Origin: Strongyloides papillosus
Taxonomy: Eukaryota > Nematoda > Chromadorea > Rhabditida > Strongyloididae
Assembly (NCBI GenBank): GCA_005656395.1
Contig: SRSI01000048.1
Location: forward strand, 2,046,001 to 2,110,000
Length of the DNA stretch: 64,000 nucleotides
Direction of reading: 5' to 3'
The notes under the pieces were generated by a model. That model saw nothing but the letters and a program-made list of their open reading frames with translations, made no database searches and had not been told where the DNA came from. Positions within the stretch are counted from its first letter, which is position 1. Each line of letters opens with the position of its first letter. Shown piece by piece: positions 38,970 through 64,000 of this stretch. The position numbers and the translations under genes are program-made.

Positions 38970-40810
38970 CTGGGTGGCCGACCTAAAACTTCCCAGATAT
39001 TTGCACATATCACTCTGCGAATAGATAAACTACAAATATGATATTATAATCATTTTGTAGTTGAGATACATGTCATCCTAAATCTCTAGAATTCATAACG
39101 AAATATGTTTCAGGGCAGTGTTATGGACTTCCAATATTTATGTGCATTTTTCGACTTTCATCAAATGTAACTTTTTTTTAAAAAGATTTTCTAATGATTG
39201 TTGCAGATTCTGAAAGCACAAAGTCTTTTGTACTAAATGACAACATTTTATGAAAATTAAAGTCCGTCTACTGTGTTAAATTTTTAAATAACAGTTTATA
39301 TTTCTGTCAAAATTTTGATGTTTTTTGACAATAAAATTTTAATCAAGTAATTTTCAAAAAAGTTTTATTAGTATTCTGATAGAGTAAGCAAAGCTCTATC
39401 GAATGAGTATATGACCGTTCGAAGCGGTTGCCTTTTAAAGAAGTTATGATTTGTCAAAGACGACTTTTTGACACTTTCAATAAAAAATTAAAATACAAAT
39501 GATACTTTTTCCGACCTTTATGATATCCTAACAGCAATAATGGCACTGCTTGAACATATTAGTCAACAGATTTTTACTTATTTTTTATATATTGTCTAAA
39601 AAAAAGAGATGTTCTTCGTCACTCAAATTTTAAAAAAGATAATTTTTTCTTTATTTTCACACCATTTACTATCATTTTACACTGCTTGTATAGATATTAT
39701 TTTGTAAAAACAATTATAATGTGTCTTTTAAATTTTTTGTATATCCACTCATAATCTCATACTCTCTATTTTTAAAATATGAGCAAGCATTTATAAAAAT
39801 AGAACAATATTTTAAATACTTTTGAAAACAAAACATAATCCGTACCCGAAAACTTGAAAAAGATTAACATATTTTCTCTTTTTACTAGAATTACTGTAAA
39901 AAAAGTCAATTTTTGACTATTCATAACTTTCTTCAAACTCAATTAAATTTAGTAATGCTATACTTATTCGATAGAGCTTTGCTTACTCTATCAGAATATT
40001 AATAAATCTTTTTTAAAAATTAACTTATTAAAATTTTATTGTTAAAAAACATCAAATTTTAGCAAAAATTGAAATTTTTAACTTATATTTAAAAATTAAA
40101 CATATTTCCTAGACTTCAATTTTCATAAAATGTTGTGATTTAGTACAAAAGACTTTGTGCTTTCAGAATCTGCAACAATTATTAGAAAATCTTTTCAAAT
40201 AAATACACAGAAAAAAAATCCGTGACATTACTTCGCGTGACATTTTGTCACTCAAAAAAAATGTCCCGCATAAAAATGTCACGTTTACTTAAAATGACAT
40301 TTTGTCACGTATTTTTAAGGACATTTTGTCACGTTTATTTAAGAAAATTTTTTTCCTACATTTTTCAAAAATACAGGACAAAATGTCACACATATTTTCG
40401 TGACAAAATGTCACGTATTTTAAAAAAATATAGGATATTCAAATATTTTAAAGGACAAAATGTCACGCATATTAAAGTGACATTTTGTCACGCAAGCAGG
40501 ACATTTTGTCCCCAAAAAAATCGGGACAAAATGTCACGCGTATGCGGGAATTCCATGCGAGTCCCACAATTTACGTGACATTTTGTCACGAAAAAATTTT
40601 CTGTGTAGTTACAGTTGATGAAAGTCAAAAAATGTTCCTAAATTTTGAAAGTCTATAACTCCGCCCAGAATCCTTATTTTGTTATGAAATCTATAGATTT
40701 AAGACAAAATGTATCTCAGCTAAAAAATGATTATAATACCATATTTGTAGCTTATCCATGCCTAAAGGTATATATGCAATTATCTGGGAAGTCATACGTG
40801 GGTCACCCTG
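38970..40810. mobile_element. foldback element A with CTGGGTGGCC ends
   Basis: The left arm from 38970 reads in reverse complement along the right arm ending at 40810. The matched pairs are CTTCCCAGAT at 38990 with ATCTGGGAAG at 40780, TTGCAGATTCTGAAAGC at about 39203 with its complement at about 40163, and AGAGTAAGCAAAGCTCTATC at 39383 with its complement at 39970. Arms are several hundred bp, with a short unique centre near 39480-39890. No coding sequence. The right arm is interrupted by the element at 40206-40605. Confidence 0.75.
40206..40605. mobile_element. 400-bp MITE built of GTGACA-AAA-TGTCAC palindromes, nested
   Basis: Flanked by TA on both sides (40204-40205 and 40606-40607). Termini CACAGAAAAAAAATCCGTGACA and its complement form the TIR. 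About ten copies of GTGACATTTTGTCAC, in both orientations and some degenerate, fill the interior. It splits the right arm of foldback A; the left arm shows the uninterrupted sequence. The apparent 118-residue frame at 40222-40578 is an artefact of these repeats. Confidence 0.8.
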
Positions 40811-43916: not shown

Positions 43917-45315
43917 ATGGCAGTCGAGTGCATAATTTGCCTTGAATCATGTGCAGCTTCTGGGACCAATCATGCTCCATATTCTACACAATGTGGACAT
44001 GTAATGGGAAAAGAATGTTTAGAAAAATTTGAGGAACATTTAAATAGCAATCGTTTTAATTGTCCTTGTTGTCACAAAGAAACAACGTTTAATAATTGCC
44101 ACCCAATATATGGTATTGCTCCAGAGGTAATTATTAATAATTAAAATATTTATCTAATTATTTTAGGTTAAGAATTGTGATACAAAATCAAGAAACACGT
44201 GTAAAGAATTAAAAGAAAACTTTGCTTTTTCAAAAGATTTCAGTGAGAACATCAATGGAACTATTAAATTTTTTGATGAACATAATGGATATGTTTTAAT
44301 TGCTGGAGAAACACCATCATTATTTTTAAATGAACAATTCATAAAATTAATTGTTATCAAGGATAAAAAAATATATGATATATCAAAACCTAAATTGGAT
44401 ATTCAATGTAGTTGTTTATGCTTCAACAAAAGTGAAAATATTGTTATTGAATTCTGTGTTGGTTATGTTGATGGTACAATTAAATTGAATACATATAAAT
44501 TTGTTGGTGATAATTTAAAAAGAATCAGTAAAGATAAATTAATTAACTTAAGTTTATCATCACTTAAACGTAGTAAGGCAATGATTAATTCTATATGTTT
44601 TTTATCTAATGATACCATTGCTCTCTCTGTTGGAAAAGGATTGATACGTATTTGGGATAAAAGAGAAAAATGGTTATCAAAAACGCAAATTATAAATGAA
44701 TGTATCGACGATGAATCTGGTAATATTATACAACTGAAAGGAACAAATTGTGATGATTGTATTGGAATAATGAATGATAGAATTTATATGTTCGAAAAAG
44801 ATGGTACTTCATATGAACTTGCTAGTGAAGATGACAAAACAGTTGTTTCATATTCAATTGATCCAAAATTTCGTGTGCTTATTGTTTTATATTCCAACGA
44901 AAGTAATTCGATACAAGAACATTCAACATCTCAGTCATTTGCTAAATATAAGATCATCTATGACAGCGAGCTACAGAGATATTATGCCGAAAAAATAAGA
45001 ATTGTTCAAAATATTGGAGATGAAATTCCAAAATCATTTATGCCAAGTTTATTTGCTATAAAAAATTCTAATAAACCGTTGATATACCATGGAATTTTCC
45101 CAAATATTGGAAATAATAATCTCGAGATTATTTCTTTGAATAATACAAGAAAATGTGTGGGATATGAAAATCTTAAAGATATGTCTAATTGTCTTGGTAT
45201 TACATTTGTTGGTAGAGAAAATTTTTGTTTTAAAAATAACTCAAAAAGAAAAATTGCCATAATATTACAAAATAGAATTGTTATAATGGATATTTCTTAC
45301 ACGTCAACTTATTAA
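43917..45315 (+). CDS. RING finger-beta-propeller protein, unit 1
   Basis: Two exons, 43917-44126 and 44167-45315, phase 0 (452 residues). A TTTAAAG acceptor abuts the ATG. Residues 5-52 form a RING with RFWD3-type spacing: C5, C8, H19, C26-G-H28, then Gly where a Cys is usual, C34, C49 and C52. That fold recruits E2 enzymes for ubiquitin transfer. After a short linker, residues about 95-452 are a WD40-like propeller: repeated hydrophobic strands with VGYVDGTIKL, GLIRIWDKREKWL and a last strand NRIVIMDIS. RFWD3 has the same RING-then-WD40 order but a longer N-terminus, and acts on RPA in DNA repair; equal function must not be assumed. No frame damage is seen. The last pair is C-P-C-C, with one extra Cys compared with its paralogues. 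Confidence 0.85.
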
Positions 45316-45894
45316 AAATTAAATTTTTTTCTGTGTGTCTACAAAAGAAACCAGTCATATTTTACAAAAGTTGGAATCGTCATTAAAAATTACAAAAAAT
45401 GTTTATTTAAGTATCACTATAAGTTTTAATATTGGTTGATTTCATAAATGATAATCGTCATATCTTTTTTTTAAAAATTATTTTAAATTTATTATTAATA
45501 ATAAGAATATTTTAATTTTATCTTAAAATCAATTTGTATAATCAAACTTTCTAAAAGTATCATATAACATTGTGATAATACTTTTTTCCTTTTAGTAATC
45601 ATAAAAACAATAAAACGATTAATTAAATACAAAATAATTTTAAAACTTTAAATTTTGTCAAAATAGCATTTACAAATCTACAATATATATATTTCTTTTC
45701 GTTACATATAGTGGTAAATTTTTTGATGTAAAAAGCTAATTCAAACCAAATGTAATATATTCGGATGATGATTTTCTCCATACAATTTATTAGACAAAAA
45801 GTAGCTTACTCATTATTAACTAAGCATTGATAAAATCACAAGAATAATATTTTTTAACATCATAATATTTGATTGTAGCTATAACTTTTAAAAA

Positions 45895-46553
45895 TAACAA
45901 TTAGGTGTCAAATTTGTTTTAAATCATATGCAGATCCTGGAACAAAGCATGCTCAATAATCTGCGAACTGTGGGCATGTAATGGAAAATCATATATGAAA
46001 ACATTAAAAGAATATAGATATAAGGGTGAACTTAATTCTCTCTTTTGTAATAAAAGAGTTGTTTTTGAAAGGTATCATCCAATATATTTTATGCCTGATG
46101 AAGTAGGTTTTTATTGTATATAATTTAAATGATTTTTTTTTTAGTTTTTTACATCTACCTCAATGATAAAAATCATACAAAAAATAGCACGGTTAAAAAT
46201 AAACAAAAAAGGAATTATACAGATGAGATGTTAAATTTATTGAATAATGTGCCTTTTTAAATATATGGGTATAAAAGAACTAAAGGATACTGATAGATAT
46301 GTCGATTCAGAGGCTGTTGTAGGAGATTTTATATTACGTGACTCAGAAACAAATGTTGGAGATTACTCAATTAGTTTAAAAGGGGGTACAAGAAATAAAC
46401 ATCATTGGATTCATATTAATAAATAAAGATAATAGTGAATATACAATTGGTAAAAATACGTTTAAATCACTGGAATTATTGATAGATTTTTATAAAGTTT
46501 ACTCAATATCCATTTGTAAAGAAGCAGATGAGAGATTGTATTTAATTTAACGA
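45895..46553 (+). pseudogene. RING-SH2 pseudogene, unit 1
   Basis: The RING exon can be followed from about 45900 (TGTCAAATTTGTTTTAAATC) but has CTCAATAA, an in-frame stop, in place of the conserved APYS codons, and lacks a clean start. The linker exon is shortened. From about 46280 the SH2 part is close to that of unit 2 (VGDFILRDSETNVGDYSISLK), but it is broken by an inserted base or stop near 46427 (AATAAATAAAG) and a final TAA in the terminal strand. It is dead by several independent lesions. Confidence 0.85.
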
Positions 46554-47121: not shown

Positions 47122-48537
47122 ATGGTAGTTTATTGTAAAATTTGCTTTGAATCATATTCAGCTCCTGGTACACAACATGCTCCATATTCTACATCATGTG
47201 GGCATGTAATGGGAAAAGAATGTTTAGAAAAATTAAAAGATTGTTCAAATGACGATGATTTTAATTGTCCTTTTTGTAGTGGAAATATTAAATTCAATGA
47301 TTGCCACCCAATATATGATATCGTTGAGGAGGTAACTTTTAGTAATTGTAATAATAATTTGATTTTTTTTTAGTTCAACGATGTTGATGAAGAATCGAGA
47401 AACATTATTAAAGAATTGAAAAAAGATAAAAAATTTAAATTTTTAAAAGATTTTAATAAGAATATAGGTGGAATTATTAATTGTTTTGATGAACACAAAG
47501 GATATATTTTAATTGCTGGAGAACATTCATCACTGGTCTTTCTAAGTAAACAATTTGTAAAATTAATTGTTACCAAGGAGAAAAAAATGTATGATATATC
47601 AAATTCTATATTCCAACAAGAATGCAGTTGTTTATGCTTTAACAAGTACAAAAACGACGTTGTTGAATTTTGTATTGGTTATGTTGATGGTGCGATTAGA
47701 TTGTATAGATATAAATTTGATGGCAATAATTTAATAATATTAGGCAAAAAATCACTTGATAATTCCGATTTCATATCGTTTTTATTTGGAACAATAGAAA
47801 TTAATTCTATATGCTTTTTAAATAATGAATCTGTTGCTTTTTCTACTGGAGAAGGAAAACTACGTATTTGGAATATAAGTGATGAATGGTTATCAGGAAC
47901 ACAAAGTTTTATAAAATTTCCTTACTCTATATCTCATAAGATTACTCACCTGAAAAGTTTAAGATTTAACGAATGTATTGGAGTAATGAATAACAGGATT
48001 TATGTATTTCCAAAAAGTGCTACTTCATATGAACTTGCAAATGAAATTGGAAAAACAATTATTTCATATTCAATTGATGAAAATTTCAGTCAACTTCTTG
48101 TTTTATATTCTAATGAAATGGATTGGAAAAGAGTAAATTCAACGTCTCAATTATTTGTTTTGTATAAAATTACAGAAGAAGATTATACAGATGATTTTGG
48201 TAAAAAATTAAAAAGATACTATGCCATTAAATTAGTAATTTATCATAATATCAAGAAAAAAATTCCAAAATCTTTTGCAGCAAGATTTTTTTCTGTAAAA
48301 CAATCTGATGGAACATTAATATATCATGGGATTTTACCAAATATGAAAGATGATCAACTGGAAATTATTTCTTTAAATAATCAAATTAAAACTGAAGGAT
48401 ATGAAGATTTCAAAGATTTAAAAAATTGTCTTGGTGTTGCTACTATTGATGGAAAAGAATCTTGTTTAAAAAGCAACTCAAGAAATAAAATTGCCATAAT
48501 ATTCAAAAATAGAGTTGTTGTAATGGATATTTTTTAA
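47122..48537 (+). CDS. RING finger-beta-propeller protein, unit 2
   Basis: Two exons, 47122-47331 and 47374-48537, phase 0 (457 residues). The ATG directly follows a TTTTAAAG acceptor; an upstream in-frame ATG lies in the outron and is ignored. The RING (C5-x2-C8, H19, C26-G-H28, C34, C-P-F-C) is intact. The propeller includes IGYVDGAIRLYRYKFDGNN, GKLRIWNISDEWL, an MNNRIYVFPKS strand, YSIDENFSQLLVLYSNEM, LIYHGILPNMKDDQLEI and a last strand KNRVVVMDIF. This is the best-preserved propeller copy and a good reference for the family. It is followed 622 bp later by the only RING-SH2 copy intact end to end. I infer a candidate E3 ligase whose propeller chooses the substrate; nothing in the sequence names the substrate. 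Confidence 0.88.
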
Positions 48538-49159: not shown

Positions 49160-49999
49160 ATGGCAGTTGGGTGTCAGATTTGTTTTGAATCATATACAGA
49201 GCCTGGGACAGAACATGCTCCATATTCGGCACCATGTGGGCATGTAATGGGAAAATCATGCATGAAAACATTGAAGGAATATGGATCTAAGGGTGAATTT
49301 AATTGTCCATTTTGTAATAAAAGAATTGTTTTTGAGTGGTGTCATCCAATATATTTTATGCCTGATGAGGTAGGCTTTTATTGTATTAAAGTTAAATGAA
49401 TTTTTTTTTAGTTTTTTACATCTACTTTTAATAGTAAAAGTCAAATAAAAAATAGTATCTTTAAGAATAAAGGCAAAGGTAATTCTATTAAAGAAGTCGA
49501 GATGTCAAATTCTTCAAAAACTGTTCCTCCTAAATTGATAGATAAAATTAACAGCAATAAGAAACAACCAGCTTCAATGGGTAGTGTAAAAATCAAGGAA
49601 AATTGTCAGGAAATAAATTTATCAAATTTTTATAATGAACTTGAAGATACACACAAGGATGAGATATCACTAAATGTGTCTAATTATCCATACTATCATG
49701 GAAAAATGAAACGGGAGGATGCTGATAAATACCTTAATTCAGAGGCTGTTGTAGGAGATTTTATATTACGTGACTCAGAAACAAATGTTGGAGATTACTC
49801 AATTAGTTTAAAAGGGAGTACGAGAAATAGACATTATTGGATTCGTGTTAATAAAGATACTAATGAATACACAATTGGCAAAAAGACATTTAAATCACTG
49901 GATTTATTGCTAGATTTTTATAAAATTCACCCAATATGCATTTGTGAAGAAACAGATGAGAGATTGTATTTAATTAAACCACTACCTAGTAAAAACTAA
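49160..49999 (+). CDS. RING finger-SH2 domain protein, unit 2 (intact)
   Basis: Two exons, 49160-49369 and 49412-49999, phase 0 (265 residues). Exon 1 is the array's RING exon (C5, C8, H19, C26-G-H28, C34, C-P-F-C), nearly the same as in the propeller genes. Exon 2 encodes a polar linker (about 71-160) and a complete SH2 domain at about 164-260: YPYYHGKMKREDADKYL, FILRDSE with the phosphotyrosine-binding Arg near 190, GDYSISLKG, NRHYWIRV, YTIGKKTFKSLDLLLDFY and ERLYLIKPL. GDF-LRDSE plus TIG-K-F-SLD-L--FY plus ERLYLIK is closest to NCK-adaptor SH2 domains. The plain reading is a ubiquitin ligase that docks on phosphotyrosine. CBL has SH2-like and RING modules in the opposite order. Splice sites are conserved in other copies. 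Confidence 0.88.
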
Positions 50000-51396: not shown

Positions 51397-52768
51397 ATGG
51401 CAATTCAATGCAAAATTTGTTTTGAATCATATTCAGCTCCTGGTACCAGACATGCACCATATTCTACATCATGTGGACACGTAATGGGAAAAGAATGTTT
51501 AGAAAAATTAAAAGAGTGTTCAAATGATGATGATTTTAATTGTCCTTTTTGTAGTGGAAATATTAAATTTAACGATTGTCATCCAATATATGGTATCGTT
51601 GAAGAGGTAATTTTTACTAATCATAATATTAATTTAATTTTTTTAGTTTAAGGATATTGATGAAGAATCGAAAAGTATCATTAGAGAATTAAAAAAAGAT
51701 AAAAACTTTTCATTTTTAAAAGATTTTAATAAGCATATAAATGGAAATATTCATTTTTTTGATGAACATAAGGGATATATCTTAATTGCAGGAGAAGCAT
51801 CATCAATGTTTACACGTACACAATTCATAAAATTAATTGTTACTAAGGAGAAACAAATATTTAATATATCAACATCTATACCTAATTCTAAACGTAGTTG
51901 TTTATGTTTTAACAAAAACAAAAACGATGCTATTGAATTTTGTATTGGTTATATTGATGGTACAATAAAATTGTACAGATGTAAATTTGATGGTTATAAT
52001 TTAAAAATTATAAGCAAAAATATATTAAATAATTTGGATTTCATATCGCATTTACGTGGAAGAATGGAAGTTAATTCTATATGCTTTTTGAATGACGATA
52101 CTGTTGCTTTTTCTATTGGAAAGGGAAAATTACGTATTTGGAATAAGAAAGAAGAATGGCTTTCCAAAACAAAAATTTTTATAAAATTTCCTTACTCTGA
52201 ATCTGATAAGATTACCCACCTAAAAAGTATAAAATTTAACGAATGTATTGGAGTAATGAATAACAGGATTTATGTATTTCCAGAAAGTGCTACTTCATAT
52301 GAACTTGCAAGCGAGATTGGAAGAACAATTGTTTCATATTCAATTGACGAAGATTTTAATCGACTTCTTGTCTTATATTCTAATGAAATGGATGGGAAAA
52401 GAAAAAATTCAACATCTCAATCATTTGTTTTGTATAAAATTATAGAAGAAGATTATACAGATAACTTTGGTAAAGAATTAAAAAAATACTATGCCATTAA
52501 CTTGATGATTAATCATAATATTGAAAGAAACATTCCAAATTCCTTTACACCAAGATTTTTTTCCGTAAAACAATCTGATAAAACATTACTATATCATGGG
52601 ATTTTACCAAATACGAAATATGATCAACTTGAAATTATCTCTTTGAATAAACAGATTAAAAGTGAGGGATATGAGGATTTTAAAAATATAAAAAATTGTC
52701 TTGGTATTACATTTGTTGATGAAGAAGAATTTTGCATGCAACGCAACACAAGAAAAAAATTGCAATAA
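51397..52768 (+). CDS. RING finger-beta-propeller protein, unit 3 (C-terminal frameshift)
   Basis: Exons 51397-51606 and 51647-52768, phase 0 (443 residues as read). The start follows a TTTTATAG acceptor. The RING is intact (C5, C8, H19, C26-G-H28, C34, C-P-F-C), and the propeller contains IGYIDGTIKLYRCKFDGYN, GKGKLRIWNKKEEWL, NRIYVFPES and LLYHGILPN. The end differs from all sisters: in the A-run 52753-52759 one A appears to be missing, so the frame leaves the family sequence and stops at 52768 with RKKLQ. The lost part is the last strand (about 15 residues, visible in the next frame, ending with a TAA at about 52803-52805). Losing the closing strand could open the propeller. A base error in a homopolymer is also possible. 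Confidence 0.8.
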
Positions 52769-53635
52769 TATTTAAAAATAAAGTTGTTGTTATGGATATT
52801 TTTTAATATAGTATGTTACTAAATTTCAAACTTTCTTTACCTGTATACTTACAAAAGAGAGAAGTTATATTTTACAATGAATGAAATCATCACATAAAAT
52901 CAAAAACATTATTAATCTTAATTATAATTTTTTATAATGGTTGATTTATTAAATGATAATTATTATACCTTGTTTGTTAACAATTTTTATTTTAATTAAT
53001 AAAGTATTTTAGTTTTATCTTAAAATCAATTAGCATAATCAGAACTTCTAAAAGTATCATAACATCGTTATAAATACCTTTTTATATCATTAAGATAAAA
53101 TGTTACTGGTCATATTAATCACAAAAATAGTAAGACGAATATTGAATTGTAAAAAAATTTTAAAACTTTAACTTTTGTCAAAATCACATTTACAATATAA
53201 TATTAAATTTTAGTATTGGTAACCAACCCTATAAAGAAACAAGGTTAGTCTAATAACATAAGACAATGTAAAATGTTATAAAAATGATAATTATTTTTTA
53301 AATCAACAAATTTATACTCATTTACAGTTCTTTATCTTCAAATATCATAAAAATATTCAAAATTCTTATTTCGACAATATGATATTTCTTTTGCTTGCAC
53401 ATAAGTAAGATATTTTGGTGAAATATGTTAGTACCTTTTAACTTTGTACTTTATCTTTTCTTTGTTTTGGTAATCTTTAGCTGGAAATAAGGTATCTAAA
53501 AAGTAGTTTACTTTATACCAATTAAAAAATGGTATATAAGAGATGTTTTTTCTCAATTAATTCACATTTGCATTTTGTTTAATTTCATCATACAGCTACT
53601 ATATTTCGTAGTATTAATAGTATAATTTTTAGTAA

Positions 53636-54408
53636 ATGCCTTTTCAATGTCAAATTTGTTTTGGATCTTATACAGATTCTGGGACTGAACATGCTCCATA
53701 CTCAGGACCATGTGGGCATGTAATGGGTAAGTCGTGCATGAAAACATTAAAAGAATATGGATCTGAAGGTGAATTTAATTGTCCATTTTGTAATAAAAGA
53801 ATTGTTTTTGAGTTGTGTCATCCAATATATCTTATGCCTGATGAAGTATGTTTTTACTATATTAAAGTTAAATGAGTTTTTTTTAGTTTTTTACATCTTC
53901 CTCTTATGGCGAAAATCATATGGTAGAAAATAAACAAAATAGTAATTCTATTGTAAAAGTTGAGATGACAAATCTTTCAAAGAAGACGCCGTCTGAATTG
54001 ATGAGTGAAATTGATATAAATATAACACAACCACTCTCAACGGTTAATATAAAAATCAAGGGAAGTTATGAAGAAATAAAAATATCAAATCGTGAAAACG
54101 GACGTGAACTTATAAATGGGAAAAATGACGGAATGTCACCAGGCGTTTCTAATTGTCCATACTGTCAGACAAAAATGAAACAGGAGGGTGCTGATGGATA
54201 CCCCGATTCAAAGACTGTTGTAGGAGGTTTTGAATCACATAGCTTAGGGACAAGTGGTGGAATTAAATTGATTAACTTAGAAGGAGATACAGAAAATTTT
54301 AAGCGTGAGATTTGGGTCGGTAGAAACAGTTTTACAAATATATATAGCCGGCAGACGTTTAGTTATAGACCCATTGGTACATTTTTTCAATGTCCTTTCA
54401 ACATGTAA
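53636..54408 (+). CDS. RING finger protein with decayed SH2, unit 3
   Basis: Exons 53636-53845 and 53887-54408, phase 0 (243 residues). The RING exon is intact and starts with MPFQCQICF; all zinc ligands are present. The linker still resembles unit 2, but the SH2 region has lost its signature: VVGDFILRDSE reads VVGGFESHSLG, so the phosphotyrosine Arg is gone, and the strands after it are unrecognisable. The frame ends early at TAA 54406-54408, whereas degenerate remains of the family's final strand follow at about 54420-54465. Many differences from unit 2 in the SH2 part are A-to-G or T-to-C. The product would be a free RING with a disordered tail, or this is a pseudogene in an early stage. 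Confidence 0.6.
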
Positions 54409-56012: not shown

Positions 56013-57418
56013 ATGGTAATTCAATGTAAAATTTGTTTTGAATCATATACAGCTCCTGGTACTAGACATGCTCCATACTCTGCAGCATGTGGCCATGTTA
56101 TGGGAAAAGAATGTTTAGAAAAATTAAAGGATTCTTCAAATGACGATTATTTTTATTGCCCTTTTTGTAGTGAAAACATTGAATTTAATGATTGCCACCC
56201 AATATATGATATCATTGAAGAGGTAATTTTTAAAAATTAATTTATTAATTTAATTTTTTTAGTTTAAGGATATTGATAAAGAATCAAGTAAACACGTGTA
56301 AAAATTTGAAAGAAAACTTTTACCTTCTAAAAGACTTTAAAAAGAATATCAATGGAAGTATTAAATTTTTTGATGAACATAATGGAAATGTTTTAATTGC
56401 TGGAGAAACGCCAGGATTATTTTCGAATTATGGGTTTATTAAGTTAATTAATACCAAGGAAAAAAAAATACACGATATTTCAAAACCTATATTTGAATAT
56501 GAATTTAGTTGTTTATGCTTCAACAAATGGGAAAATGATGTTATTGAATTCTGTGTTGGTTATGTTGATGGTAGAATTAAATTGTATAGATATTCATATG
56601 ATGATAATATGTTTAAAAGATTAAGTAAAAATACATTATTTTACTTAAATTTTTCATCTGTTAAAAGTGGTAAAAAGATAATTAATTCTATATGTTTTCT
56701 ACCTAATGATACTGTTGCTTTTTCTTATGGAAGAGGAAAACTACGTATTTGGAATAAGAGAGAAGAATGGCTATCCAAAACACAAATTTTTAAAAAAATT
56801 CCTTACTCTGAAAATGATAATATCACTCATCTTAAATGTACAAAGTATGGTGATTGTATCGGAATAATGAATAATAGAATTTATGTATTTCCAAAAGATG
56901 CTCCTTCATACGAACTTGCCAGTCAAACTGGAAAAACAATTATTTCATATTCATTTAACGAAGATTTTAATCGACTTCTTGTATTATATTCTAATGAAAT
57001 GGATTGGAAAAGAAAAAATTCAACATCTCAAACATTTGTTTTGTATAAAATTATAGAAGAAGATTATACAAATAATTTTGGTAAAACATTAAAAAAATAC
57101 TATGCAATTAACTTGGTAATTAATTATAGTATTGAAAAAAAAATTCCAATATCTTTTATAGCCAATCTTTTTGCTGTAGAACAATCTGATGGAACATCAC
57201 TTTATCATGGGATTTTACCAAATATTAAAGAAAATCAACTTGAAATTATCTCTTTACATGATCAAATTAAAAGTAAGGGATATGAAGACTTCAAAGATAT
57301 AAAAAATTGTCTTGGTATTACATTTGTTGATGGAGAAGATTTATGGACACAACGCGATTCAAGGAAAAAAGTAGTCATAATATTTAAAAATAAAGTTGTT
57401 GTAATGGATATTTTCTAA
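56013..57418 (+). CDS. RING finger-beta-propeller protein, unit 4 (altered splice junction)
   Basis: Exon 1 is 56013-56222, with an intact RING after a CTTCGAAG acceptor. The family acceptor would start exon 2 at 56263, but there an extra T after TCAAG (near 56290) puts the frame into a stop within 13 codons. Using the AG at 56280-56281 instead, exon 2 becomes 56282-57418 and the complete propeller is read in frame, losing about six residues of linker (448 residues total). The alternative acceptor has a poor pyrimidine tract. The propeller is complete: VGYVDGRIKLYRYSYDDN, RGKLRIWNKREEWL, NRIYVFPKD, SLYHGILPNIKENQLEI and KNKVVVMDIF. Functional if the alternative AG is used, a pseudogene if not. 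Confidence 0.7.
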
Positions 57419-58028: not shown

Positions 58029-58689
58029 ATGAAATGTCAATTTTGTTTTGAATCTTTCACAGATCATAGAACTGAACATTCTCAATACTCATCACCATGT
58101 GGACATATAATGGGAAAATCATGTTTAGAATGATTAAAAGAATTTGGATCTAGGGGTGAATTCAATTGTTCTTTTTGTAAAAAAAGGATAATTTTTGAGT
58201 CGTGTCATCTAAAATATCTTAGTCTTAACGAAGTATGTTGTTATTATACTAAAGTTAAATGAATTTATTTAGATTGTTACTTCTACATGTAATGGTAAAA
58301 ATCAAGCAAAAAATAATATGGTTAAGAATAGACATAAAGGGGATTCTACAGGTGAAAAGTCAAATTTATTAAATAATGTGTTTTTGAATCTATGGGCATA
58401 AAAAAAGATTCTGGTAGATACCTCAATTCAAAGACTGTTGTAGGAGATTTTACATTACGTGACTCAGAGACAAATGTTGGAGATTAATGAATTAGTTTAA
58501 ATGGAATTTTTGAAAACAAATATTATTGGTTTCGTGTTAGTAGAAATACTGATGAATACGCAAATTGTAAAAATACATTTAAATCATTGTTTTCTTTGGC
58601 AGATTTTTTATAAAGTTCACCCAATACGTATTTCTAAAGAAATGGATGAAAGATTGTATTTAATTAAACTGTTACACAGAAAAAACTAA
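58029..58689 (+). pseudogene. RING-SH2 pseudogene, unit 4
   Basis: Exon 1 (58029-58232) starts MKCQFCFESF as in unit 5, two residues shorter than other copies. It has an in-frame TGA at 58131-58133, right after KSCLE, and the last zinc pair reads C-S-F-C. In the SH2 exon GDFTLRDSETNVGD is followed by a TAA, and frame shifts occur near 58395 and 58605. The tail RLYLIKLLHRKN is still readable, ending at 58689. Confidence 0.85.
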
Positions 58690-61489: not shown

Positions 61490-62834
61490 ATGGCAATCGA
61501 ATGTATAATTTGCCTTCAATCATGTGAAGCTTCTGGTACCAGACATGCTCCATATTCTACACCATGTGGACATGTAATGGGGAAAGAATGTTTAGAACAA
61601 TTAAAGATGCTTTCAAAAGATGATCATTTTAATTGCCCTTTTTGTAATGAAAATATTAAATTTAATAGTTGTCGTGCAATGTATGGTATCGATGAAGAGG
61701 TAATTTTTAATAATTTAAATAATAGTTAGATTTTTTTAATTTAAGGATAATACTGAAGAATCAAGAAATTTTATTAAAGAATCAAAAGAAAATAAAAACA
61801 TTCTTTTTTCAAAAGAATTTAGAAATGACATAAATGGAAATATTAAATATTTTGATGAACACAAAGGATATATCTTAATTGCTGGAGAAGGATCATCAAG
61901 GTTTCCTGGTACACAATTTATAAAACTAATTGTTACAAAGGAGAATAAAATATATGATATATCAAAATCTATAATCAAACCCAAATGTAGTTGTTTATGT
62001 TTTAACAAGTACAATGATGACGTTATTGAATTTTGTATTGGTTATATTAATGGTACAATAAAGTTATATAGATGTAAATTTGATGGTAATAATTTAAAAA
62101 TAATGGATAAAAAATCATTAAATAATCGTGATTTCATATCACATTTACATGGAAGAATAGAAATTAATTCTATATGCTTTTTAAATAATGGTACTGTTGC
62201 TTTTTCTATTGGAAAAGGAAAACTGTGTATTTGGAATAAAAGTAATAAATGGTTATCAAAAACACAAATTATTAAAGAGTTTCCCTACTCTGAATCTGAT
62301 AAAATTACCAACCTAAAAAGTACAAAGTATGGTGATTGCATCGGAATAATGAATAATAGAATTTATGTATTTCAAAAAAGTGGTACTTCATATGAACTTG
62401 TCAGTGAAATTGGAAAAAAAATTATTTCATATTCAATTGACGAAGATTTTAATCGACTTCTTGTCTTATATTCCAATGAAATGGATAAGAAAAGAAAAAA
62501 TTCAACATCTCAATCATTTGTTTTCTATGAAATTATAGAAATAGATTATACAGACAACTTTGGCAAGAAATTTAAAAAATATTATGCAATTAACTTGATA
62601 ATTAATAATAGTATTGAAAGTAAAATTCCAAAATCTTTTATAGCGAAACTTTTTGCTGCAGAGCAATCTGATGGAACATTTCTATACCATTGCATTTTAC
62701 CAAATATGAAAGATATAAAAAATTGTCTTGGTATTACATTTGTTGATGGGAAAGAATTTTGTATACAACGCAATTCACGAAATAAAATTGCTAAGATATT
62801 TAAAAATAAAGTCATTGTAACCGATATGCTTTAA
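61490..62834 (+). CDS. RING finger-beta-propeller protein, unit 5 (internal deletion)
   Basis: Exons 61490-61699 and 61746-62834, phase 0 (432 residues). The RING is intact (MAIECIICLQSCEASG; C5, C8, H19, C26-G-H28, C34, C-P-F-C). The usual acceptor AG has become AA, and the next AG, six bases on, keeps the frame, dropping two codons. The propeller reads IGYINGTIKLYRCKFDGNN, GKGKLCIWNKSNKWL, NRIYVFQKS and LYHCILPNMK, then lacks 22 residues relative to unit 2 (between two AAAGAT repeats) and ends NKVIVTDML. The blade motif R-I-W is C-I-W here. The frame is open throughout, so it may be expressed, but losing a strand pair from a propeller should disturb folding. Confidence 0.78.
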
Positions 62835-63370: not shown

Positions 63371-63900
63371 ATGAAATGTCTACTCTGTTTTGAATCATAT
63401 ACAGACCCTGGAACAGAACATGTTCCATATTCGGCACCATGTGAACATATAATGGGGAAATCATGTTTGGAAAGATTAAAGGAATATGGATCTAGGAGTG
63501 AATTCAATTGTCCTTTTTGTAAAAAAAGGATAATTTTTGAGTCGTGTCATCTAAAATGTCTTAGTCTTAACGAAGTATTTTGTTATTATATTAAATTTAA
63601 ATATTTTTTTAGTATATTTCATTTACCCCTAATGGTAAAAATCAGACAAAAAGTAATACGACTAAGAATAGACGTAAAGGGGATTTTACAGATGAGATGT
63701 CAATATTATTAAAAAATGTGCTTTTTGAATCTATGGATATAAAAGAGGATGTTGATAAATACCTTAATTCAGAGGCTGTTGTAGGAGATTTCCTATTACG
63801 TGACTTAGAGACAAATGTTTGAGATTATTCAATGAGTTTAAAAGGAATTACAAGAAACAGACATTATTGGATATCATGAAATGTAATTAATAGTGAAAGA
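63371..63900 (+). pseudogene. RING-SH2 gene, stop in SH2 and truncated, unit 5
   Basis: Exon 1 is 63371-63574 (68 codons, MKCLLCFESYTDPG). The C-G-H is C-E-H, so the zinc ligands remain but the motif is changed. Exon 2 starts at 63613 and reads the linker and VVGDFLLRDLETNV to an in-frame TGA at 63820-63822, where sisters have Gly. The SH2 remnant continues (DYSMSLKG-TRNRHYW) to about 63880 and then jumps to relic sequence, so the second half of the SH2 domain is deleted. A truncated RING protein of about 137 residues could still be made. Confidence 0.75.
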
Positions 63901-64000
63901 TTTATGTTACATTTATTTATTTCAAATATTATAAGTGATGCTTTTAAAAGTATTAACTGTAGGATCATGGGGTGAATAACTAAACGAGTATGCAAATAGA
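63885..64000 (+). pseudogene. start of unit 5 relic and TTAA insertion, cut by window end
   Basis: AATAGTGAAAGATTTATG and LFISNI-type sequence correspond to the propeller relic of the other units. From about 63952 it continues in TTAACTGTAGGATCATGGGG, the left end of the TTAA-site insertion. The unit continues beyond the window. Confidence 0.5.

What the first reader, a model, noticed from the sequence alone, without database searches (positions are those of the whole stretch)
49160..49999. RING domain joined to an NCK-type SH2 domain in one protein
Seen: the two exons join in frame at conserved splice sites, giving N-terminal RING, polar linker and a full SH2 domain with the FILRDSE phosphotyrosine pocket. 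Known: CBL has its SH2-like module before the RING, and Hakai uses a different pTyr module. I know of no family with N-terminal RING and C-terminal SH2. Inference: a kinase-dependent ubiquitin ligase that evolved separately from CBL.
Basis: partly seen in the sequence, partly recalled or inferred. Interest (0 to 1): 0.92.

Follow-up and report, generated by a model that had tools for sequence, protein, structure and literature searches.

The report
Natural RING–SH2 fusion in threadworms
Parasitic threadworms (at least three Strongyloides species) encode a protein with a RING, the domain type found in ubiquitin ligases, at its start and an NCK-type SH2, the phosphotyrosine-reading domain type, at its end; it would likely tag tyrosine-phosphorylated signalling proteins with ubiquitin, a natural counterpart of RING–SH2 fusions that laboratories built to silence a growth-factor receptor.

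Summary
Exons 49160-49369 and 49412-49999 join in frame over a 42-bp GT..AG intron and give 265 residues: RING (5-54), a probably disordered linker and a full SH2 (164-240). The join is not an accident of one locus. Predicted full-length RING–SH2 proteins are held for S. papillosus (2 of 265 residues differ, so the window is that species or very close), S. venezuelensis (85%) and S. ratti (45-47%), and a second intact copy lies just past the window.

Trees favour one origin. The SH2s form a clade beside the host's own NCK. The RINGs form a less firmly supported clade beside the RING–propeller genes that alternate with RING–SH2 genes in this array; four of its six RING–SH2 copies are decayed.

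The SH2 keeps its phosphotyrosine pocket (R171, R190, H211). The RING is closest to RNF4 among solved structures, including the HPIY tail, but one of eight zinc ligands is Gly31 and RNF4's Arg181 is Asn. Ligase activity is inferred, not shown.

Best precedent: the engineered RING-SH2(Drk), which down-regulates EGFR in flies. Best reading: a phosphotyrosine-directed ubiquitin ligase that arose separately from CBL. Main rival: a degenerate RING acting as dimerising adaptor or competitor of NCK.

The parts
49160..49369 (+). Exon 1: ATG, RING (residues 5-54) and RNF4-like HPIY tail (residues 62-65, 49343-49354); 70 codons
   Evidence: splice position shared with paralogues printed
49250..49252 (+). 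Codon for Gly31 where C3HC4 RINGs (and RNF4) have the fifth zinc ligand, Cys
   Evidence: Alignment to RNF4; Gly in all four RING-SH2 proteins of A2; 12 Gly, 1 Val, 1 Cys in the 14 RING frames matched
49370..49411 (+). 42-bp intron, GT..AG
   Evidence: 40-bp intron at the same place in the second intact copy
49412..49999 (+). Exon 2: polar linker (residues 71-160) and NCK-type SH2 (residues 161-262, 49682-49987), stop 49997-49999
49769..49771 (+). Arg190 (beta-B5 phosphotyrosine arginine of FILRDSE; position name recalled)
   Evidence: invariant in A2
49832..49834 (+). His211 (beta-D4 pocket histidine; position name recalled)
   Evidence: invariant in A2
43917..45315 (+). RING-propeller paralogue, array member 1
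45890..46550 (+). RING-SH2 paralogue, frame broken (decayed)
47122..48537 (+). RING-propeller paralogue, array member 2, open frames
51397..52768 (+). RING-propeller paralogue, array member 3 (its frame ends about 13 residues short of the held protein P0008)
53636..54408 (+). RING-SH2 paralogue: RING open, SH2 part no longer recognised by Pfam
56013..57418 (+). RING-propeller paralogue, array member 4
58029..58689 (+). RING-SH2 paralogue, frame broken (decayed)
61490..62834 (+). RING-propeller paralogue, array member 5 (no AG at the usual intron end)
63371..63950 (+). RING-SH2 paralogue, decayed (RING frame open, SH2 frame broken)

Best explanation
This is a RING–SH2 protein of Strongyloides that is predicted to act as a phosphotyrosine-directed ubiquitin ligase: its likely NCK-derived SH2 would dock on tyrosine-phosphorylated receptors or scaffolds, and its RNF4-like RING would, likely as a dimer, bring ubiquitin-charged E2 to them. 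SHOWN here: the gene structure, the domain order, the conserved phosphotyrosine pocket residues, the RNF4-like RING with the HPIY tail, and the same architecture in predicted proteins of three named species. INFERRED: the origin, by joining a RING exon of the array's RING–propeller family to the SH2 end of the host's nck gene in the Strongyloides stem. INFERRED: clustering on multiply phosphorylated targets would raise local concentration and drive RING dimerisation, as SUMO chains do for RNF4. INFERRED: the outcome would be down-regulation of NCK-type signalling, by ubiquitination of the bound protein and by competition with NCK for the same sites. UNTESTED: expression, E2 binding, ubiquitin transfer and phosphopeptide binding.
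Against: One of eight zinc ligands is missing (Gly31), and RNF4's Arg181, which with Met140 is needed for E2 binding, is Asn here and Asp in the second copy. Between the two intact copies the SH2 shows dN/dS 0.88 and the linker 1.2, near neutral; the whole gene 0.68. Four of the six RING–SH2 copies of the array are decayed, and the copies on contigs C24 and C26 are broken. No transcript, protein or activity data. The second S. venezuelensis entry (P0006) is a truncated mixture.
Confidence: 0.5

Rival explanations
1. A degenerate RING that no longer activates E2 on its own. The protein is a dimerising adaptor or competitor: it would occupy NCK binding sites, or supply the HPIY tyrosine in trans to a RING–propeller partner that binds the E2.
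For: Gly31 and loss of the Arg181 equivalent; in RNF4 a protomer unable to bind E2 (M140A+R181A) still works in a heterodimer because it supplies Tyr193 (PMC3991395 passages); Tyr65 of HPIY is invariant in A2; RING–propeller relatives L058 and L059 and Parastrongyloides P0018 keep Arg at the linchpin.
Against: The Gly is shared by 12 of the 14 RING frames matched and by the Parastrongyloides RING–propeller, so it looks inherited rather than a new loss in RING–SH2; the RING is the best conserved part between the two copies (58 of 70 residues, dN/dS 0.17). The array RING–propellers themselves have Ser or His at the linchpin.
Confidence: 0.28
2. A recent, fast-turnover array product under little constraint: an open frame that is drifting towards decay like its neighbours.
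For: Four of six array copies decayed; SH2 and linker dN/dS near 1 between the intact copies.
Against: Same architecture in S. ratti and S. venezuelensis; SH2 is 92% and RING 87% identical to S. venezuelensis against 74% for the linker; pocket residues invariant.
Confidence: 0.17
3. Gene-model artefact: RING and SH2 exons belong to separate transcripts, with an SH2-only protein from the ATG at 49502.
For: No transcript evidence was available; the in-frame ATG exists. The database proteins may all rest on automated gene prediction.
Against: Gene models in three species join the same two parts; the intron lies at the same codon boundary as in RING–propeller paralogues and the second copy; P0015 encodes RING-linker-SH2 in one open frame of a 1757-base assembled contig, although whether that contig is RNA or DNA is not known.
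Confidence: 0.04

Closest known systems
Engineered RING-SH2(Drk) and RING-SH2(Grb2) (PMC3038869 abstract and passages; PMC11310040 passages)
   Same: RING plus an adaptor-type SH2 in one small protein; the fly construct promotes endosomal traffic of the EGFR complex, lowers signalling and displaces Drk
   Different: Man-made; CBL RING and Drk/GRB2 SH2. Here RNF4-like degenerate RING and NCK-class SH2, made by evolution
CBL family (c-CBL, CBL-B, SLI-1; members recalled)
   Same: Couples phosphotyrosine reading to a RING
   Different: CBL has its TKB module (four-helix, EF, SH2-like; make-up recalled) N-terminal to the RING (D-CblL layout). Here RING first, a canonical NCK-type SH2 last, no CBL N-terminal family hit
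NCK / Dreadlocks adaptors
   Same: SH2 ancestry and pocket; database entries of S. venezuelensis and S. ratti are called Dreadlocks
   Different: No SH3 domains; a separate nck gene with SH3 and SH2 hits lies at C4:1.857 Mb
RNF4 (SUMO-targeted ubiquitin ligase)
   Same: Closest solved RING, HPIY tail with the tyrosine that engages ubiquitin
   Different: RING is N-terminal here, one Cys ligand and Arg181 are missing; SUMO-interaction motifs were not searched for
RING–propeller genes of the same array (human RFWD3 has RING plus WD40; its similar Gly is recalled, not checked)
   Same: Same RING exon, same intron position, alternate with RING–SH2 in the array
   Different: Second exon codes for a propeller-like part (weak WD40-type hits only), not SH2
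SOCS proteins
   Same: SH2 that recruits ubiquitination (recalled)
   Different: Work through a SOCS box and a cullin (recalled); no SOCS box hit here

Membership tests
CBL | TKB module (4H, EF, SH2-like) N-terminal to the RING | tested here: not met
   RING 5-54, SH2 164-240; no CBL N-terminal family among the 15 families at E<=1
SH2 domain | Full Pfam SH2 profile and beta-B5 Arg | tested here: met
   PF00017 1-77, E=1.2e-17; Arg190 invariant in A2
NCK family | SH2 groups with NCK | tested here: met
   Closest solved SH2s NCK1/2; clade with host NCK
NCK family | Three SH3 domains before the SH2 | tested here: not met
   No SH3 hit at E<=1; the host nck gene gives SH3 hits with the same library
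C3HC4 RING | Eight zinc ligands | tested here: not met
   Seven of eight; ligand 5 is Gly31
RING family by profile | Over Pfam gathering score | tested here: met
   zf-RING_UBOX, zf-RING_5, zf-RING_2, zf-C3HC4 over cut-off
RNF4-type RING | C-terminal HPIY tail, tyrosine engaging ubiquitin | tested here: met
   Alignment; role of Tyr193 from PMC3991395 passages
RNF4-type RING | Arg181-equivalent linchpin | tested here: not met
   Asn in the window gene, Asp in the second copy
SOCS | SOCS box C-terminal to SH2 | tested here: not met
   No SOCS box family at E<=1; only 3-25 residues follow the SH2 profile match
Ubiquitin ligase | Transfers ubiquitin with an E2 | not testable with these tools
   Needs a biochemical assay
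Phosphotyrosine reader | Binds phosphotyrosine peptides | not testable with these tools
   Only pocket residues checked

The most novel reading that the evidence does not exclude
Strongyloides built a kinase-gated ubiquitin ligase from scratch by swapping the propeller exon of an RNF4-like RING gene for the SH2 end of nck. It works as a RING heterodimer with the RING–propeller proteins encoded next to it, so that SH2 and propeller read two features of one target, and it serves as a natural silencer of NCK-type receptor signalling.
Probability: 0.15. Interest if true: 0.9.

Novelty: new variant of a known kind. Interest (0 to 1): 0.7.

Why it matters
CBL is the classic RING ligase that reads phosphotyrosine through an SH2-like module (recalled). 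A second, independently assembled RING–SH2 protein, with relatives of both parental genes still in the same genome, would show that kinase-directed ubiquitination can be reinvented by one exon exchange. It would also be the natural version of a design that laboratories made by hand to shut down EGFR. It sits in a worm lineage where SPOP-like genes are expanded in S. venezuelensis and S. papillosus, and F-box genes are more often raised in their parasitic females than in those of S. ratti and S. stercoralis (PMC5979966, passages), so a link to parasitism can be asked directly.

Tried and rejected
AlphaFold with four sequences gave a poor model (mean pLDDT 43.8); with 17 rows the RING and SH2 became usable (62.3 overall), though six of those rows are NCKs whose SH3 parts fall on the RING and linker columns, and four are RING–propellers whose propeller falls on the SH2 columns. 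Fold searches were filled by SH2 chains (rows span 156-265), so they say nothing about the RING fold; RING identity rests on sequence.

Pfam gave no match over cut-off for the propeller exons, only weak WD40-like hits, so 'propeller' for the neighbours is a cautious label. I considered RFWD3 as the parent type of the RING–propeller family; the layout fits, but I did not verify RFWD3's sequence, so it is recalled only.

dN/dS against S. venezuelensis or S. ratti could not be computed because only proteins were at hand; the paralogue pair is a poor substitute. The first RING tree contained one row in the wrong orientation (L050) and was redone. The first SH2 tree had eight outgroup rows from the genome, of which the tool left out three as nearly empty and one (L002) was 13% filled; the second kept only L001 as outgroup and dropped the C26 row. 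Both versions are quoted. The spider and mite NCK rows were cut as the last 105 residues, which in P0017 starts inside the domain.

Six aimed at a natural RING–SH2 protein, one at ligase expansion in Strongyloides, one at the S. papillosus genome, one each at RFWD3 and RNF4. Four returned nothing. The six papers listed were not opened. Subscription journals are not held, so this is weak evidence of absence. Protein searches are limited by shared words and length, so absence outside Strongyloides is not proven: of the 14, 19 and 6 hits, none with a non-Strongyloides species name carries both RING and SH2; P0015, which carries both, is unnamed.

Full report

WHERE IT IS FROM. The window is C7:2046001-2110000 of a 58.2-Mb assembly. 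Its protein differs at 2 of 265 residues from A0A0N5BR47 of Strongyloides papillosus, so the host is that species or very close to it. S. venezuelensis (P0002, 265 aa, 85%) and S. ratti (P0005, 248 aa, 45-47%) hold full-length predicted RING–SH2 proteins, both named after Dreadlocks, the fly NCK. An unnamed assembled contig of 1757 bases encodes 191 residues of another, nearest to S. ratti and ending inside the SH2 (P0015). A second intact copy lies at C7:2112873-2113680, 2.9 kb past the window end, with a 40-bp intron at the same codon boundary; its protein is identical to the database protein P0003 of S. papillosus.

THE ARRAY. From 43.9 kb to the window end and on to 67.7 kb, RING–propeller and RING–SH2 genes alternate head to tail. 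I count six RING–SH2 copies. Two are intact (49160 and 66873 on the window scale). Three have broken frames (45.9, 58.0, 63.4 kb). One (53.6 kb) keeps the RING but its SH2 part is no longer recognised by Pfam. Broken copies also lie on contigs C24 and C26; the C26 copy has lost the phosphotyrosine arginine (FILLDSE). The RING exon has further relatives in the genome: which returned 70 matches to the whole protein (a lower bound), RING-part matches lie on C1, C7, C14, C23, C24, C26, C35, C36, C38 and C40. Of four such loci outside the arrays that I looked at, three (L057-L059) show a long second exon of the propeller kind; L060 showed none on the strand read.

ORIGIN. The SH2s of RING–SH2 proteins form one clade (95/93 in the second tree, 96/94 in the first) that joins the host's own NCK (93/95 and 96/95) before Rhabditophanes NCK. 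The host nck, with three SH3 matches over two exons and a C-terminal SH2, is open elsewhere on C4. The RINGs of RING–SH2 proteins form one clade (92/89; 80/81 in the first, flawed tree) beside the array RING–propeller RINGs, the two together at 99/97. The RING–SH2 intron also sits where the RING–propeller intron sits. I infer one joining event, RING exon plus NCK tail, before S. ratti and S. papillosus/S. venezuelensis separated. The only hit named Parastrongyloides was a RING–propeller protein (P0018); this fits an origin within Strongyloides but is limited by search sensitivity.

HOW IT SHOULD WORK. In the four RING–SH2 proteins of alignment A2, R171, R190, D191, S192, E193 and H211 are invariant; by the usual SH2 nomenclature (recalled) R171, R190 and H211 are alpha-A2, beta-B5 and beta-D4. 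The SH2 should therefore still bind phosphotyrosine. The RING keeps seven of eight zinc ligands and the RNF4-type HPIY tail. Passages of PMC3991395 say that RNF4 Tyr193 engages the ubiquitin of E2~ubiquitin, that the M140A+R181A double mutant cannot bind E2, and that substrate chains switch RNF4 on by inducing RING dimerisation. I placed these residues by counting back along the RNF4 chain aligned with the tail tyrosine as 193 (an assignment that I recall); the count lands on Arg at 181 and Met at 140. Here the tail tyrosine is present (Tyr65); the residue at Met140 is Phe and that at Arg181 is Asn. The fifth zinc ligand is Gly31. In 14 RING frames matched by a pattern in the window and the loci then held, ligand 5 was Gly in 12, Val in 1 and Cys in 1 (L057); frames failing the pattern were not counted. 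The Parastrongyloides RING–propeller also has Gly there. The substitution therefore looks like a family trait rather than a fresh injury, but it leaves activity open.

PRECEDENT. The abstract and passages of PMC3038869 describe RING-SH2(Drk), D-Cbl's RING fused to Drk's SH2. It down-regulates EGFR in fly follicle cells, increases endosomal traffic of the receptor complex and reduces Drk in the EGFR complex by 40%; the RING alone had no significant effect on ligand distribution. PMC11310040 (passages) mentions RING-SH2Grb2. PMC7332993 (passages) shows that an RNF4 RING retargeted by a nanobody degrades its targets. So the architecture is sufficient in principle. The Strongyloides gene would be the natural case, if its RING is active.

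EVIDENCE AGAINST MY READING. Between the two intact copies dN/dS (Nei-Gojobori, my script) is 0.17 for the RING, 1.2 for the linker, 0.88 for the SH2 and 0.68 overall; dN>=dS in 0%, 72%, 37% and 4% of 500 bootstraps. The SH2 of the second copy is thus nearly unconstrained or diverging in specificity. Against S. venezuelensis the order differs: SH2 97 of 105, RING 61 of 70, linker 67 of 90 residues identical; against S. ratti 54 of 105, 47 of 70 and 17 of 65. That fits constraint on both domains, but synonymous divergence could not be measured. Four of six array copies are dead. No RNA or protein evidence was seen.

VERDICT. Observation confirmed; interpretation partly supported. It works like a CBL or an engineered RING-SH2 at best; it is not a member of the CBL, NCK or SOCS families by the tests listed, and meets the RNF4 RING features only in part. 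The architecture, its presence in three named species and its traceable parents are the surprising part.

Noticed in passing
43917-63950 and on to C7:2113680: Tandem array of alternating RING–propeller and RING–SH2 genes; the propeller exons have no curated family match over cut-off, and further RING relatives lie in other places of the genome.
   Followed up: partly
52700-52830: The third RING–propeller copy ends its frame about 13 residues earlier than the held S. papillosus protein P0008, so this assembly and the database strain differ there.
   Followed up: partly
L057 (C1:1508467): One RING–propeller relative keeps all eight zinc ligands and matches a solved RNF4 chain (two fused RINGs) at E=4e-20; it may be close to the ancestral form.
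   Followed up: partly
G000 C3:149447 with C39:362373, and C11:1880277 with C29:547687: SH2 matches with identical scores on two contigs each, which suggests retained haplotypes or recent duplications in the assembly.
   Followed up: no
P0006 (S. venezuelensis): A 159-aa database protein joins a RING–propeller-type RING to pieces of a RING–SH2 protein, which suggests that the alternating array exists in S. venezuelensis too.
   Followed up: no
40186-40578: Open frame made of short degenerate repeats (TFCH / KMSR words), probably repeat DNA rather than a gene.
   Followed up: no
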